Shown in pieces: positions 47,940 to 64,000 of a DNA stretch of 64,000 nucleotides. The notes beneath the pieces are model-generated. The model saw only the letters and a list, made by a program, of their open reading frames with translations, did no database searches and was not told the DNA's origin. Numbering within the stretch: position 1 is the first letter of the stretch; each line of letters starts with the position of its first letter. Where the stretch lies: positions 124,001 to 188,000 of the forward strand of contig JAOSJV010000012.1 in NCBI GenBank assembly GCA_027493935.1, read 5' to 3'. The position numbers and the translations under genes were made by a program. The DNA comes from Burkholderiales bacterium (lineage in GTDB: Bacteria > Pseudomonadota > Gammaproteobacteria > Burkholderiales > SG8-39).

Positions 47940-49052
47940 TCAAGCGCGCTCAGGCCTGGTTTGGGTCGAAGCGATGGCCCACACAAAGCCCGTCAGCTCG
48001 CGCGCCACGGCCACGCAGACCTTGTTCAGGTGCACGCCTCTGGCCTTGAGTACCGCGAAGCGTGCGCTCAGTCGCAGCTGCGCCTTCCAGGCCACGTCGC
48101 GAATCGCCTGCGGCAAGTCTTCCGCCCGGCGCTGTGCCTGATAGCCGATACGCGGAGGAAAGCGGTAATTCCATGCCGCCTCGGTGAGCAGCCGACGCGC
48201 GTGCGCATTGCCCGTCTTGGTGATGCTGCCACGCACCACCCGCTCGCCGCTCGAGTGCTCGCTCGGCACCAAGCCAAGATAGCTCATCAGTTGGCGCGGG
48301 TGGGCGAAGCGCGCGATGTCGCCGATCTCGGCCACCAAGCCAATGGCGCTGATCATGTCGATGCCGCGCAGCGCCTGCAGTGCCTGCACGATCGAGGCGA
48401 AGCGCCAGCCTTCGATCGAGCTGCCCAGCGCGGCGGTGAGCCGCGCCACGCGCTCATCTGCTGTGCTGACGGCTTGCCAGTACTCAGTGAAGGCGGTCTG
48501 CGCGCCGGACTGGGCAAAGCTCAACGTCGCCAGCCAACGATAGAACGTCTTGCTCCACGACGTGCGATGCGGGTAACGCACCTCGTGGCGGAGCAGGAAG
48601 CTCTTGAGCTGGTGGCGCGCTTGGGTGCGGGCGTTGACCGCGTCCTCGCGGGCACGCGCCAAGTCACGAATCGCCTCATCGGCCGGGTCGGGAATCCATA
48701 CCGCGCGCAACTCACCGGCACGCGAGAGCTCGGCCAAGCGGATGCCGTCGCGCCGATCGGTCTTGACGCGCTCGCCTGGGCGACGCGGGATCAGCGACGG
48801 GGCGATCACTTCGCAGCGATAACCACGCCGGGCCAGCTCGCGCTGCAGTCCATAACCGGTCGGACCAGCCTCATAGACCACATGAACCTGCGCCGCATCG
48901 CCGAAACGCGCAAACAGCTTCCGAAGCTTGCCGACGTCGTGCGCGATCGTGCCTACGAGGCGCGCCGGCGCCCGCCCTACCTCCGCCACGGCCACCGCGA
49001 TCGAGTCCTTATGCACGTCCAGTCCAACGAAAACTTTGATACCTTGTTCCAT
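47940..49052 (-). CDS. IS110-family transposase (DEDD)
   Basis: MEQGIKVFVGLDVHKDSIAVAVAE, VYEAGPTGYGLQRELARRGYRCEVIAPSLIPRRPGERVKTDRRDGIRLAEL, C-terminal transposase_20-like GIDMISAIGLVAEIGDIARFAHPRQLMSYLGLVPSEHSSG. Confidence 0.95.
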   Translation of the reverse strand: MEQGIKVFVGLDVHKDSIAVAVAEVGRAPARLVGTIAHDVGKLRKLFARFGDAAQVHVVYEAGPTGYGLQRELARRGYRCEVIAPSLIPRRPGERVKTDRRDGIRLAELSRAGELRAVWIPDPADEAIRDLARAREDAVNARTQARHQLKSFLLRHEVRYPHRTSWSKTFYRWLATLSFAQSGAQTAFTEYWQAVSTADERVARLTAALGSSIEGWRFASIVQALQALRGIDMISAIGLVAEIGDIARFAHPRQLMSYLGLVPSEHSSGERVVRGSITKTGNAHARRLLTEAAWNYRFPPRIGYQAQRRAEDLPQAIRDVAWKAQLRLSARFAVLKARGVHLNKVCVAVARELTGFVWAIASTQTRPERA

Positions 49053-58839: not shown

Positions 58840-59172
58840 CTACGCGCCGCGCGACTTCACCTCGCCGCGCTGGATGCGCAGCAGCTCTTCGAGCTGGCGG
58901 CGCGCGTCGTCGAACGCCTCGCGCACGGCGGCATAAGCGTCCTCGTCGTGCGCGCGGTTGACGACGATCTCGCGGCCGGGCACGCGCAGGTCGACGCGCA
59001 CACTGAACTCGCGCCCGTTCGACTGGTGACGCGACCGCTCCTCGACGACGACGCGGCAGCTGGTGATGTTCGCGCGCGTCGCCTCGAGCTTCGCGGCGCT
59101 CGCGTGAATCGCCGCCTCGAGCGGCTCGGACTGCCGGATGCCGCGAAACGTGACTTGCAGCGGGAGTTGCAT
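58840..59172 (-). CDS. hpf: HPF/RaiA-family ribosome hibernation factor (short form)
   Basis: MQLPLQVTFRGIRQSEPLEAAIHASAAKLEATRANITSCRVVVEERSRHQSNGREFSVRVDLRVPGREIVVNR. Confidence 0.87.
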   Translation of the reverse strand: MQLPLQVTFRGIRQSEPLEAAIHASAAKLEATRANITSCRVVVEERSRHQSNGREFSVRVDLRVPGREIVVNRAHDEDAYAAVREAFDDARRQLEELLRIQRGEVKSRGA

Positions 59173-59259
59173 CGTGACCTCTATCCCCTGGCAATCGCCG
59201 GCGGAGCGCCGGCATCGGTTCCAATCCAGCCCGCCCCGCGCGGCGGGCTTTGACCTCGA

Positions 59260-60269
59260 TCAATCCCCGCAGTGCGCCGCGGAAAGCTCGTCGCGCAGCT
59301 CGGCCTCGCGCTCGGTGTAGCGCGGCGAGAAGTGGAAGGGGACCACCCGCCGGGCGCGCGCCAGGCGCGCGATCGTGCCGGCCTGCCGCGCAGTGAGATG
59401 GAACTTGCGCGCCGCGTGGTCGGCGTCGGCGTTTAGGAACACCGACTCGATGAAGAGCTGGTCCGCGTCGGCGGCGAGCGCGGCGATGCGGCGCGCGTTC
59501 TCCTCGTGGTAGACGACGTCGGTGACGTAGGCGATCTTCTCGCCGGGCACGAGCCCGAGCACCTTTGTCTTGAGCTCCCCGAGCGGGAGCGTGCGCTCGT
59601 GCGGACCGTCGCGGTCGCGCCACCATGCCCGGATCGGCGTGCCTTCGGGGCGCCGGCGAACACCGCGTCCTTCAGCGCCTTGAGCCAGGGACCGGTCGGC
59701 AGGCCGAGCTCCGCCAGGCGGTTCTTCCACACGTTGACATGCATCTTCTCCTCCACCGCGAAGGCGAGGCATGCGGTCTTGTGATCGAGGAACTCGGCGC
59801 GCACGCTGAACGCCGGATCGTCCAGGAGCACGCCCGGCGGCAGGCGCGGCGCCGCGGCCGGCTCGCGCCGAAACCGCCGATGACAGCCGAAGCGCGCGGC
59901 GCGCATCGACCAGTCGGGGGCGACCTCGTGCACGGCGATGGCGAAGTCGACCGGGTAATTCTCGACGAGATTCCACGTGTACGCGGCGAGCTTGTGCTCG
60001 ACCTGCTCGAGGAACCCGGGCGGCCCGTAGAGCCGCACGCCCGTCTCGCGGCCGACGCATACGCGCAGCAGCCGGTCGAAGCCGTAGAAGTGGTCCATGT
60101 GCGTGTGCGAGACGAACACGTCCGACACGCGCAGCAGCTTCTTCGGCGGCAGCGCCGTGACATCGCCGAGGTCGAGGAGCAGCGCGCGGCGCTCGAACTT
60201 GAAATCGAGCAACAGCCCGGGGTCGCCGAACGGGCCGTTCACGAGCTCGGGGGAGAAGATCAGGCGCAC
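59260..60269 (-). CDS. MBL-fold ribonuclease Z-like protein, frameshift near 59650
   Basis: GDPGLLLDFKFERRALLLDLGDVTALPPKKLLRVSDVFVSHTHMDHFYGFDRLLRV, C-terminal VVPFHFSPRYTEREAEL; one C missing near 59650. Confidence 0.85.
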
Positions 60270-60370
60270 GGGAACTTCGGTGGGCAGCGGGCAGTGGACA
60301 GCGGCCGGCGGGCGGTCACGCGAGACCGGAGAGGGTAAACTCTCCGCAACCCCTTTCACTGCCGGCTGCC

Positions 60371-60625
60371 CTGTCCGTTTTTCCTGTCACCGTCGAGTGC
60401 TACGCCGGCTACCGCGGCGAGCAGGAGCCGCGGGCGTTCACGCTCGGCGAGCGGCGGCTGGAAGTCGCGGCGATCCAGGACCGCTGGCTCGCGCCGGAGC
60501 ACCGCTACTTCAAGGTCGCCGCGAGCGACGGCGACACCTATATTCTGCGCCACGACGCCCAGACCGGCGAGTGGACCCTGGGGGCGTTCCGGCGCGGGAT
60601 CGAGCGCGCAGCCAGTCAGGACTGA
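60371..60625 (+). CDS. Small hypothetical protein, not in ORF track (no ATG/GTG/TTG start in frame)
   Basis: Frame reads VFPVTVECYAGYRGEQEPRAFTLGERRLEVAAIQDRWLAPEHRYFKVAASDGDTYILRHDAQTGEWTLGAFRRGIERAASQD*. Confidence 0.5.
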   Translation: MSVFPVTVECYAGYRGEQEPRAFTLGERRLEVAAIQDRWLAPEHRYFKVAASDGDTYILRHDAQTGEWTLGAFRRGIERAASQD

Positions 60626-60909
60626 GCGCCGCGGGCGCCGCACCTGGGCGGCGCCGTGCGGTGCCAGATCAGCTCGCCGACGCGCCAGAGCCTGCGCACG
60701 CGGTGGTGCGGGACGGTGTGCACCGACCCGTCCGCCTCCACCGCCTCGATGGCGAAATGCGCGCCGGGCGCGAAGCCGATGCGCGCCAGCGCAGCGTCTG
60801 CCTCGGCGCCCGCCACCGGATGCCAGTAGCCGATCACGAACCTCGCGCGGCCGAACGCCGGTTCCCAGCGGATCCGTGCCGGCAGCTCGTGGATCGGCAT
60901 TTTCTTCAT
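60616..60909 (-). CDS. DUF504 / MJ1316-like domain protein (putative RNA cyclic-phosphate end recognition)
   Basis: MPIHELPARIRWEPAFGRARFVIGYWHPV..VPHHRVRRLWRVGELIWHR; start overlaps rtcA stop (ATGA). Confidence 0.7.
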   Translation of the reverse strand: MKKMPIHELPARIRWEPAFGRARFVIGYWHPVAGAEADAALARIGFAPGAHFAIEAVEADGSVHTVPHHRVRRLWRVGELIWHRTAPPRCGARGAQS

Positions 60910-61952
60910 GCAGCGCCGTCCGCTGTCGGGGTGATCGTGACCCGCACCCGCTCGCCGTCCTGCGCGTGACCGAAGCGCACCGGCAGGAACTGCTCGATCA
61001 GCCACATCGCAGTACGCGCATGGTCCGAGAGCTCGCGCGTCGTGAACGCCGAGGCGCCGCCGGCGAGCGCGAGATAGACGAGGAGCTGGTCCGCGGCGTG
61101 GCGGTCGAGCGCTGCGCCGCTCGCGAGGTCCGCGGCGAGCGCGCGCCCGACCGCGTCGCCGAGCGCCTCGGCACGCACGCCGCGCTCGGCGGCGCGGCCG
61201 GCGCCGAGCACGCTCGCCTCGGCGCGCGCCCAGACGACGATCGCCCCGCCTTGCGCGATCGCGTCGGCGCCGCCGAGGACCGCGGTCGCGATGCGCGCGT
61301 TCGCCGCGTCAGGGCCAAGCGCCTGGAGCGCCCCGGCGCGCATCCGCTCGGCGATGTGCGCCGGGAGATGCGCGACGTGCGCCGACCCGCGGAGCTCGAC
61401 GAGTGCGCCCGGCGCGTCGAGCGCGACGGCGCGCAGCCGGGCGGGCGTCACGTCGAGCGCGATCTCGCCGCCGCCGCGCGGAAAATAGCCGCGCCGCAGG
61501 ACGCGCCCGGCCACGCGCGCGCCCATGCGCGCGAGGTGCGGCAGCAGCACCTCGATGAGGTAGTCGGCGGGCGGCGCCTGGCGCACGTCGGTGCCCCCGA
61601 CCACCGTCACGCGCGAGGCGACCGGCGCCGCGAGCAGCACCGGAAGCGCCGCCTGCAGCACGAGCGTAGCGCTGCCGGCGGTGCCGACTTCGAAGCGGAA
61701 CGCGCCGCCGCGCGGCGCGCCGGGCGCGAAGGTGAAGCTCGTGGCACGCAGCGCGAGACCCTCGACCCGCGCATCGCAGAGCGCGGCGACCGCGCGCACC
61801 GCCGCGAGGTGCTGGGGCGCGAGCCCGGGCTTCTCGCGGCCCGCCCGAACGTTGAAGAGCCGGATCGGCGTGCCGGTCACCGCGGCCAGCGCCACGGCGG
61901 TACGCACGAGCTGGCCGCCGCCCTCGCCGTGCGCGCCGTCGATCTCGATCAC
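60906..61952 (-). CDS. rtcA: RNA 3'-terminal phosphate cyclase
   Basis: MIEIDGAHGEGGGQLVRTAVALAAVTGTPIRLFNVRAGREKPGLAPQHLAAV; HAADQLLVYLALAGG. Confidence 0.95.
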   Translation of the reverse strand: MIEIDGAHGEGGGQLVRTAVALAAVTGTPIRLFNVRAGREKPGLAPQHLAAVRAVAALCDARVEGLALRATSFTFAPGAPRGGAFRFEVGTAGSATLVLQAALPVLLAAPVASRVTVVGGTDVRQAPPADYLIEVLLPHLARMGARVAGRVLRRGYFPRGGGEIALDVTPARLRAVALDAPGALVELRGSAHVAHLPAHIAERMRAGALQALGPDAANARIATAVLGGADAIAQGGAIVVWARAEASVLGAGRAAERGVRAEALGDAVGRALAADLASGAALDRHAADQLLVYLALAGGASAFTTRELSDHARTAMWLIEQFLPVRFGHAQDGERVRVTITPTADGAA

Positions 61953-61980
61953 CGCACGGCCGGGCCCGGAAGTCCGGCGG

Positions 61981-62487
61981 CTAGCGCGTCCAGTGCACGC
62001 GCAGCAGCCGGTCCTCCTTGTTGTAGTGGTACTCGAGCTTGCCGCGGAACGCGTGCTCGAGCGCGTCGCCGATCGCGCGCGCGAGGTGCGGCGCGGCCGT
62101 CGTCACGAGCAGTCCGTCGGCGCCGTCCTCGATCGCCATCAGGCGTTCGAGCGGGTGCTCGGCCTTCTCCCGCGCCTCGACGTTGCGGACCAGGTGGATG
62201 ATCTCATCGCGGTGCCCCTCGAGGAACTCGCCGCCGATCGCGACGTAGCCGGCGGGAAACCGGTCGAGCACGCGATGACAGGCCGGGCAGCGCTGTTCGT
62301 GCGCGCCGGCCTCGGCGGGCCCCCAGCGCCAGCGTCCGGCGCGGAACACCGCGCCGCAGTCGGGGCAGCGGGCCGGCTCGGGCAGCTTGGCGCGTGACTT
62401 GTAGGTGTCGTGCACGCGCTCCTGGAGCAATCGGTTGCTGCGGCGAATGCGGCGGAAACCTTCCGGGGCTTTGATGACCACTCCCAT
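61981..62487 (-). CDS. BCAM0308-family (NMD3-like zinc ribbon) protein
   Basis: HDTYKSRAKLPEPARCPDCGAVFRAGRWRWG..QRCPACHRVLDRFPAGYVAIGGEFLEGHRDEIIHLVRNVEAREKAEHPLERLMAI; two CxxC pairs. Confidence 0.82.
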   Translation of the reverse strand: MGVVIKAPEGFRRIRRSNRLLQERVHDTYKSRAKLPEPARCPDCGAVFRAGRWRWGPAEAGAHEQRCPACHRVLDRFPAGYVAIGGEFLEGHRDEIIHLVRNVEAREKAEHPLERLMAIEDGADGLLVTTAAPHLARAIGDALEHAFRGKLEYHYNKEDRLLRVHWTR

Positions 62488-62565
62488 GGCGCCGGCTCCT
62501 TTCGCTGCTATCGTCCGCCAGCGGCCCGGGCGCGCATTGACGCAAGTCAAACCGGCGGCCCGGCC

Positions 62566-63812
62566 TCAGTCCCACCGCAGCGCGAGCCGGCCTCCACTCG
62601 TGCGCTCGACGCGCGTGCCGAGCTTTGCGCCTTCGCGGCCGAGCGTCGTCGCGAGCCAGCCCGTCTCCTCGTCGCTCGCGCGCTCCAGCCGAAAGCGGCG
62701 GATCCGCATCGGCACGAGCGCGAGCGCGAGAAGCCGCCCGCTCGCGGCCTCGACCGTCGCAAAGTACATCAGCGCGAGCTCTGCGCGGAACGACTCGTAG
62801 CCGCCGATACCTTCGTAGTCGTTCAGGAAGTCGCCGCAGCCGTACAGGATCAGCCGCTCGCGGTGAACCTCGATCCCCTTCGGGTGGTGCGACGAGTGCC
62901 CGTGCACGATGTCCGCGCCGCCGGCGTCGACGAGGCCGCGTGCGAACGCGCGCTCGGCATGTCCGATCTCGTAGCCCCAGTTGCCGCCCCAGTGGATCGA
63001 GACCACCACGACGTCGTGCCGGCCTTTCGCGCCGCGCACGCGCTCGGCGACTGCATCCACGCTGCGCGCCGAGAGATCCGGCAGCAGGCTCACGCCCGCG
63101 CGGGCTGCGCCCGCGGCCCATTCGGCGCCGACGCCGGAGCTCTCCGTGCCGTAGGCGAACACGAGCACGCGCCGTCCGCCCGGCAGCGCGATCGTCGCGG
63201 GCGCGGCGGCCTCGACCGCGTCGCGGCCGGCGCCTGCGGTGCGCATGCCCGCCGCGTGCAGCGTCTCGAGCGTGTCGGCAAGTCCGCGGTGACCCCAGTC
63301 GAGCACGTGGTTGTTCGCGAACACGCAGCAGTCGAGCTTCGCGGCGGTCAGGCACGCGACATTCGACGGATGCATCCGGTAGTGGATGCCCTTGCCCGGC
63401 CAGGCGTCCTCGGCGGCCGTCACCGACGTCTCGAGATTCACGATGCGCGCATCGGGCCGCACCCGCTCGAGCTCGGCGAGCGCATCCCCCAGACGTATGC
63501 GACCTGCACCGGCCGCGCGACCGGCCCGTTCGCCCGCTCCGCGAGCGCGACGTAGTCGAGCGCCGAGCGCGCGTAGGGCTCGTAGAGGTGCGGCGCGCTT
63601 GGGTGCGGCAGGATCTGGTCAACGCCGCGGCCCGTCATCACGTCGCCGCAGAGAAACAGCGTGACCGACGCGGCACCGACCTGCTCAATCGGCGCCATCG
63701 CAGTCGTCCGCCGCGGCGCAGCCGGCAAGCCGCCCGCCGCCGCGAGCGTCGCTGCAGCGGCACCGCCCAGCACTGCGCGACCGAGCGTTGCAAGGAAGCG
63801 GCGTCGCGTCAT
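62566..63812 (-). CDS. CapA-family (poly-gamma-glutamate capsule biosynthesis-like) protein, frameshift near 63490
   Basis: MTRRRFLATLGRAVLG (Tat-like leader), VTLFLCGDVMTGRGVDQIL, + RIVNLETSVTAAEDAWPGKGIHYRMHP; one G missing near 63490. Confidence 0.87.
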
Positions 63813-63856
63813 GCCGGTGGCGCGGACGCACAGCCATGCGCGTGCGGGCCGGCCGT

Positions 63857-64000
63857 TCAACGCCCGCCGGGCGCAGCGCCGCGGTGCAGGCGGTCGTCGT
63901 CGGCGATCTGCGCCAGCAGCTCCTCGACGCGCCGCGCGCCGCCGCGCTTGGCGAGGATCTCGCGCGGCGAGCGGCCGCCGAGCTGCACGCTCGGGCGATC
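63857..64000 (-). CDS. C-terminal fragment of an unidentified protein, truncated by window edge
   Basis: Open to the window edge: ..DRPSVQLGGRSPREILAKRGGARRVEELLAQIADDDRLHRGAAPGGR*; weak resemblance to MbcA/ParS-type antitoxin C-termini. Confidence 0.3.
   Translation of the reverse strand, partial: DRPSVQLGGRSPREILAKRGGARRVEELLAQIADDDRLHRGAAPGGR

What the first reader, a model, noticed from the sequence alone, without database searches (positions are those of the whole stretch)
60616..62487. Compact RNA-end operon: BCAM0308 (NMD3-like zinc ribbon) - rtcA - DUF504/MJ1316
Three minus-strand genes lie in tight succession: a BCAM0308-like double CxxC protein, about 28 bp, rtcA, then a DUF504 protein whose ATG overlaps the rtcA stop (ATGA). 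RtcA makes 2',3'-cyclic phosphate RNA ends. From memory, the MJ1316/DUF504 domain has been proposed in comparative genomics to recognise cyclic RNA ends. A maker plus a putative reader of cyclic ends, with an NMD3-like ribosome-type zinc ribbon and no RtcB or RtcR in the window, could be a poorly described RNA repair or tagging module. This is the best candidate system here.
Basis: partly seen in the sequence, partly recalled or inferred. Interest (0 to 1): 0.72.

Follow-up and report, generated by a model that had tools for sequence, protein, structure and literature searches.

The report
Oxygen-switched RNA-repair genes with ribosome factor
Three adjacent bacterial genes (an RNA-end cyclase, a small RNA-ligase helper and an NMD3-like ribosome protein) look like part of an RNA-repair kit whose ligase lies nearby, in a stress-survival island carrying DNA switches of the type used to sense loss of oxygen, which would be an unusual way to control RNA repair.

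Summary
Window 60616-62487 (-) encodes BCAM0308 (NCBIfam E 9e-61), RtcA (TIGR03399 E 4e-115) and MJ1316/DUF504 (PF04457 E 9e-14), with a 28-nt gap and an ATGA overlap. 'No RtcB' is an edge effect: rtcB and archease lie on the same contig and strand, 9.3 kb past the window end. RtcR was not found.

MJ1316 tracks the long, archease-type RtcB rather than RtcA: all 25 MJ1316-positive genomes in two samples have that RtcB, while only 5 of 10 relatives have RtcA. BCAM0308 is NMD3-like by profile and predicted fold, belongs to Burkholderia's low-oxygen-activated (lxa) locus, and often neighbours the hibernation factor HPF.

A perfect FNR/Anr-type box lies 50 nt upstream of the operon. The genome has 37 such boxes; 7 fall within 32 kb here, including upstream of HPF and of glgC-GH57-archease-rtcB. 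Relatives repeat them despite rearranged operons (11-13 of 27 long-type rtcB loci, 0 of 17 short-type).

Best reading: the cyclase/accessory arm of an archease-type Rtc system under oxygen-responsive control in an lxa-like island. New variant of a known kind. Expression and activity are untested; this genome's MJ1316 copy is unusually diverged.

The parts
62537..62550 (-). FNR/Anr-type palindrome TTGACTTGCGTCAA, centre 56 nt upstream of the BCAM0308 ATG
   Evidence: Perfect match; 0.03 expected per window by shuffling; 37 such sites genome-wide, 7 in this 32-kb island; also upstream of BCAM0308 in relatives
61981..62487 (-). BCAM0308-family protein, NMD3-like, two CxxC pairs
   Evidence: NF040826 E 9e-61; NMD3 profile in 7/7 homologues; fold search top 13 all Nmd3
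60906..61952 (-). rtcA, RNA 3'-terminal phosphate cyclase
   Evidence: TIGR03399 E 4e-115; full-length match to 1qmh and 4o89
60616..60909 (-). MJ1316/DUF504 protein, ATGA overlap with rtcA; unusually diverged copy
   Evidence: PF04457 E 9e-14; divergence
59250..59263 (-). FNR/Anr-type box TTGATCGAGGTCAA, 78 nt upstream of HPF
   Evidence: same spacing in G003
58840..59172 (-). ribosome hibernation factor HPF/YfiA-like (S30AE domain), neighbour in the same island
   Evidence: PF02482 E 1e-13; often next to BCAM0308 in relatives, 9 of 30

Best explanation
The three genes are the cyclase-and-accessory operon of an archease-type Rtc RNA-ligation system placed under an oxygen-responsive FNR/Anr-type activator. 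When oxygen falls, an Anr-like regulator binds the box at 62537-62550 and turns on BCAM0308-rtcA-MJ1316, while other boxes serve HPF and the glgC-GH57-archease-rtcB unit. Broken RNA ends carrying a 3'-phosphate are made into 2',3'-cyclic phosphates by RtcA. MJ1316 acts as an accessory of long-type RtcB, probably by holding the cyclic end. RtcB with archease and GTP reseals the RNA. BCAM0308 and HPF act on the large subunit and on idle ribosomes, so that the translation machinery survives dormancy. Shown here: gene identities, operon geometry, boxes, island clustering, co-occurrence. Inferred: induction by low oxygen, the RNA substrate, cyclic-end binding by MJ1316, ribosome binding by BCAM0308.
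For: Gene identities. rtcB and archease on the same contig and strand. All MJ1316-positive genomes have long-type RtcB: 10/10 relatives (27/101 have it; Fisher p 4e-7) and 16/16 in the class sample (58/274; p 3e-12), own genome in both. MJ1316 within 500 nt of rtcA, rtcB, archease, HPF or BCAM0308 in 28 of 69 loci, in varied arrangements. FNR-type boxes: 37 genome-wide against 3 for the reversed control, 7 in 32 kb, p about 3e-9; upstream of long-type archease-rtcB in 11-13 of 27 loci against 0 of 17 short-type; upstream of BCAM0308 directly in 11 of 30 relatives, or through HPF in 5 more. RtcR not found. Anr-like regulator with Cys cluster and ETVSR helix present. BCAM0308 is in the low-oxygen lxa locus and is NMD3-like. 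RtcB is oxidation-sensitive with anaerobic origins, PMC12263435.
Against: No expression data for this organism. P-values ignore shared descent. Boxes are absent near rtcA-MJ1316 of Nitrosomonas and near several long-type rtcB loci, so oxygen control is lineage-limited. rtcB is in a separate unit whose box is about 4 kb upstream, before glgC. The local MJ1316 has changed near-invariant residues. MJ1316 has no significant structural match. The genome is 86.6% complete, so RtcR could be missed.
Confidence: 0.5

Rival explanations
1. Loose stress neighbourhood: the genes share an FNR-type regulator because the island is a low-oxygen regulon, but BCAM0308, RtcA and MJ1316 do not act in one RNA pathway.
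For: The island also holds metabolic genes: glycogen, glucokinase, phosphofructokinase, katG. BCAM0308 is often found without Rtc genes (4 of 30 relatives have Rtc genes within the roughly 1.5-kb flanks fetched) and lies in the Burkholderia lxa list that has no Rtc genes.
Against: MJ1316 follows long-type RtcB without exception in two samples, and MJ1316, rtcA, archease-rtcB, HPF and BCAM0308 recombine with each other in many arrangements.
Confidence: 0.25
2. Housekeeping Rtc repair of tRNA damaged by toxins or phage, with the FNR-type boxes of minor importance; the operon answers to RNA damage rather than to oxygen.
For: Known role and damaged-tRNA trigger of the Salmonella rtcBA operon, PMC7790460. 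Many MJ1316 and rtc loci have no box.
Against: RtcR not found; strong local clustering of boxes; boxes recur upstream of differently arranged units of the same genes.
Confidence: 0.15
3. The local MJ1316 copy is losing its function, so in this genome the operon is only BCAM0308 and rtcA in effect.
For: Changed near-invariant residues; 13 own-lineage against 4 G003-lineage amino-acid changes in 81 positions; an mscS-like gene that follows MJ1316 in G001 and G003 is missing here.
Against: Frame intact and PF04457 still well above its cut-off; no indels; dN/dS 0.37 is not neutral, and raised dS (0.49 against 0.13 in rtcA) fits replacement by recombination.
Confidence: 0.3

Closest known systems
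rtcBA RNA-repair operon of E. coli and Salmonella (RtcR/sigma54 control)
   Same: RtcA cyclase works with an RtcB ligase to mend RNA with phosphate ends
   Different: Here RtcB is the long archease-linked type in a separate unit, MJ1316 and BCAM0308 are in the rtcA operon, RtcR was not found, and FNR-type boxes are present
archease-rtcB operon of archaea and bacteria (PMC3973293)
   Same: archease directly upstream of long-type rtcB
   Different: Here linked to rtcA, MJ1316, HPF, BCAM0308 and to FNR-type boxes
MJ1316/DUF504 family (PF04457), named for a proposed RNA cyclic-end recognition
   Same: Member by profile; association with Rtc genes is the known basis of the proposal (from memory and from the Pfam name; the 2016 paper is not held)
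   Different: Local copy is diverged; the exclusive link to long-type RtcB and the box next to MJ1316 in G016, G026 and G005 are added here
lxa, low-oxygen-activated locus of Burkholderia cenocepacia (BCAM0275a-BCAM0323)
   Same: BCAM0308 family, universal stress protein, small heat-shock protein, 6-phosphofructokinase, Crp/Fnr-family control suggested
   Different: The published gene list names no Rtc, archease or MJ1316 gene; different bacterium, different gene order
NMD3, large-subunit export and maturation factor of eukaryotes and archaea
   Same: BCAM0308 matches the profile in 7/7 homologues and the fold search finds Nmd3 first
   Different: 168 aa against about 350-500; TM-score at most 0.44; the local sequence is just below the Pfam cut-off

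Membership tests
RtcA (RNA 3'-phosphate cyclase) | Full-length match to the family model over cut-off | tested here: met
   TIGR03399 384.6 bits against 250
RtcA (RNA 3'-phosphate cyclase) | Active-site His in the C-terminal motif (E. coli His309, from memory) | tested here: met
   His of 'SDHART' aligns with 'SCHLLT' of 1qmh and 'TNHLKT' of 4o89
MJ1316 (PF04457) | Profile match over cut-off | tested here: met
   52.3 bits against 26.3
MJ1316 (PF04457) | Near-invariant residues of the family | tested here: inconclusive
   The nine columns invariant in 42 sequences are kept; near-invariant D16, D30 and R31 are changed to E, H and P
[quoted passage not shown]
   Proposed only; needs biochemistry
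BCAM0308 family | NF040826 equivalog over cut-off | tested here: met
   204 bits against 100
NMD3 | PF04981 over cut-off and the same fold | tested here: inconclusive
   Local copy 23.9 bits against 24.9; 7/7 homologues match, best E 2.4e-8; top structural hits are Nmd3 with modest TM-score
E. coli-type rtcBA/RtcR operon | rtcB in the same operon as rtcA | tested here: not met
   rtcB is about 11 kb away in another unit
E. coli-type rtcBA/RtcR operon | RtcR regulator present | tested here: not met
   PF06956 not found; genome 86.6% complete
lxa-like low-oxygen locus | Shared gene families with the published locus | tested here: met
   BCAM0308, Usp, HSP20 and phosphofructokinase families present within about 50 kb
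lxa-like low-oxygen locus | FNR/Anr-type boxes in the locus | tested here: met
   7 boxes in 32 kb
lxa-like low-oxygen locus | Induction under low oxygen | not testable with these tools
   No transcript data

The most novel reading that the evidence does not exclude
An oxygen-switched ribosome-preservation module in which Rtc RNA repair (RtcA, MJ1316, archease-RtcB), an NMD3-like bacterial large-subunit factor (BCAM0308) and HPF are induced together by an Anr/FNR regulator, so that cut tRNA or rRNA is resealed while ribosomes hibernate during anoxia.
Probability: 0.35. Interest if true: 0.75.

Novelty: new variant of a known kind. Interest (0 to 1): 0.55.

Why it matters
The physiological trigger and substrate of archease-type RtcB in bacteria are poorly known. 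An oxygen-responsive switch gives a directly testable condition, fits the oxidation-sensitive chemistry of RtcB, links RNA repair to ribosome hibernation, and gives a first guess at the role of BCAM0308, an uncharacterised protein of the Burkholderia anoxic-persistence locus.

Tried and rejected
RNA tagging without RtcB: rejected after finding rtcB-archease nearby. RtcR-type control: not found. Rfam RNA in 55-64 kb: none. Sigma70 promoter scan: none; one terminator-like hit inside rtcA, judged chance. Solved structures by sequence for MJ1316 and BCAM0308: none useful. MJ1316 fold search: no significant match; weak hits to Hfq, LSm and WYL small barrels are a lead only. Frameshift as the cause of the odd MJ1316: rejected, the DNA aligns without indels. 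Papers tying RtcB to FNR/Anr: none found in the held library, which lacks the 2016 MJ1316 paper and the 2013 lxa paper.

Full report
Observation. On the minus strand of the window, BCAM0308 (61981-62487), rtcA (60906-61952, GTG start) and MJ1316/DUF504 (60616-60909) follow each other with a 28-nt gap and an ATGA overlap. Profile searches confirm all three. RtcA aligns over nearly its whole length with solved RtcA chains 1qmh and 4o89. BCAM0308 carries two invariant CxxC pairs, its homologues match the NMD3 profile in 7 of 7 cases (best 2.4e-8), and its predicted model (mean pLDDT 74) finds Nmd3 of pre-60S particles in each of the first 13 places, the best at E 5.9e-4. TM-scores are modest (0.44 or less), so the resemblance is partial.

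The window edge hid the ligase. RtcB lies at G000:C12:197303-198733 (-) with archease at 198737-199153 (-), behind a GH57 gene and glgC. That is 9.3 kb past the window end and about 11 kb upstream of BCAM0308, on the same strand. RtcR was not detected; the genome is 86.6% complete.

What MJ1316 goes with. Of 101 relatives, 10 have MJ1316 and all 10 have the long RtcB (about 550-580 bits, with archease), which 27 have; 5 of the 10 have RtcA. In 274 genomes sampled over the class, 16 have MJ1316 over the cut-off and all 16 have the long RtcB, which 58 have. The window's own genome is in both samples, so the total is 25. Gene neighbourhoods agree: of 69 loci with at least 1 kb on both sides, MJ1316 lies within 500 nt of rtcA in 19, rtcB in 4, HPF in 4, BCAM0308 in 2 and archease in 1; 28 loci have at least one of these. 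Arrangements differ: rtcA-MJ1316 in Nitrosomonas, divergent rtcA in Nitrosospira and Nitrosovibrio, archease-rtcB-MJ1316-BCAM0308 in a Sulfuricellaceae genome, L092. A partner that recurs in changing arrangements is better evidence of a functional link than one conserved order.

Regulation. A perfect TTGACTTGCGTCAA lies 50 nt upstream of BCAM0308. The FNR/Anr-type pattern TTGAYNNNNRTCAA occurs at 37 places in 5.19 Mb, and the reversed control pattern at 3. Seven of the 37 lie in C12:183250-215134. The chance of 7 or more in such a 32-kb stretch is about 3e-9, or 5e-7 after correction for scanning. Boxes sit 78 nt before HPF, 50 nt before BCAM0308 and 96 nt before glgC, the head of glgC-GH57-archease-rtcB; the others precede katG, an aminotransferase, an unnamed short gene and an HSP20 gene. 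In relatives, a box is within 350 nt upstream of archease-rtcB in 11 of 27 long-type loci, or 13 if the HPF-archease-rtcB operons of G001 and G003 are counted, against 0 of 17 short-type loci. It is directly upstream of BCAM0308 in 11 of 30 loci, and upstream of an HPF-BCAM0308 pair in 5 more. It is upstream of MJ1316 itself in G016, G026 and G005. Over 1.48 Mb of fetched sequence there are 74 boxes and 2 control matches. The genome encodes an Anr-like protein with an N-terminal Cys cluster and an ETVSR recognition helix. By eye, a box centred 41.5 nt upstream of a start near 62502 would leave a short leader with AAAGGAG before the ATG, as expected for a class II FNR promoter; this is inference.

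The island. Around these genes lie HPF, RNase Z (frameshifted here), Usp, KatG, HSP20, phosphoglucomutase, glucokinase, glycogen synthase, a PPi-type phosphofructokinase and phosphoribosyltransferases. BCAM0308, Usps, a heat-shock protein and a 6-phosphofructokinase are also listed in the lxa locus of Burkholderia, which answers to low oxygen and has Crp/Fnr-family candidates as regulators (PMC4981469; PMC9104464; PMC6127331). That published list names no Rtc genes.

Mechanism. Shown: identities, operon geometry, ligase nearby, co-occurrence, boxes. From known enzymology: RtcA turns 3'-phosphates into 2',3'-cyclic phosphates, and archease helps RtcB to be guanylylated and to ligate. RtcB chemistry has anaerobic origins and its active-site Cys is prone to oxidation (PMC12263435), which makes expression without oxygen sensible. 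Inferred only: MJ1316 presents the cyclic end to RtcB, and BCAM0308 acts on the large ribosomal subunit. Repair of tRNA or rRNA during dormancy is the likely role; the substrate is unknown.

A caution about this genome. Its MJ1316 differs from the G003 counterpart far more (69% identity, dN 0.181, dS 0.486) than rtcA does (93%, 0.036, 0.129), and has changed near-invariant residues. There are no indels. An MscS-like gene that follows MJ1316 in G001 and G003 is missing here, and MJ1316 now overlaps the convergent small frame by 10 bases (MscS by eye). Replacement by recombination near a deletion fits both facts; loss of function is not excluded.

Limits. P-values ignore shared descent. Boxes are sequence matches. 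There are no transcript data for this organism. The paper that proposed MJ1316 as a cyclic-end binder is known to me from memory and from the Pfam name only.

Verdict. Observation confirmed, interpretation partly supported. The finding is a new variant of a known kind, with an untested but sharp prediction of oxygen control.

Noticed in passing
window 60389-60625 (+): Frame of about 78 codons, convergent with and overlapping the MJ1316 end by 10 bases, weakly like DUF6504 (E 0.011). It is the most constrained gene tested here (dN/dS 0.02-0.05 against the genus) and recurs near HPF, RNase Z and MJ1316 in other genomes. Its start codon is unclear.
   Followed up: partly
window 59260-60359 (-): RNase Z (PRK02126-like) split over two frames here; it is one 387-aa frame in G003. 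Real mutation or assembly error.
   Followed up: partly
window 62566-63860 (-): CapA/PGA_cap-like protein whose N-terminal part seems to be in another frame, joined near 63450.
   Followed up: no
window 63857-64000 (-), to C12:188081: Fragment like the Xre/ParS antitoxin of RES-Xre toxin-antitoxin pairs (NF049845 E 4.5e-13, below its cut-off); no partner looked for.
   Followed up: no
L022 and L021, downstream of MJ1316: An MscS-like channel gene (by eye) sits between MJ1316 and the small convergent gene in G003 and G001 but is missing in the window's genome.
   Followed up: partly
G001 (L175) and G003 (L168): A second HPF-like gene is the first gene of a boxed HPF-archease-rtcB run.
   Followed up: partly
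window 47940-49052 (-): Frame that looks like an IS110-type transposase by eye; not searched.
   Followed up: no
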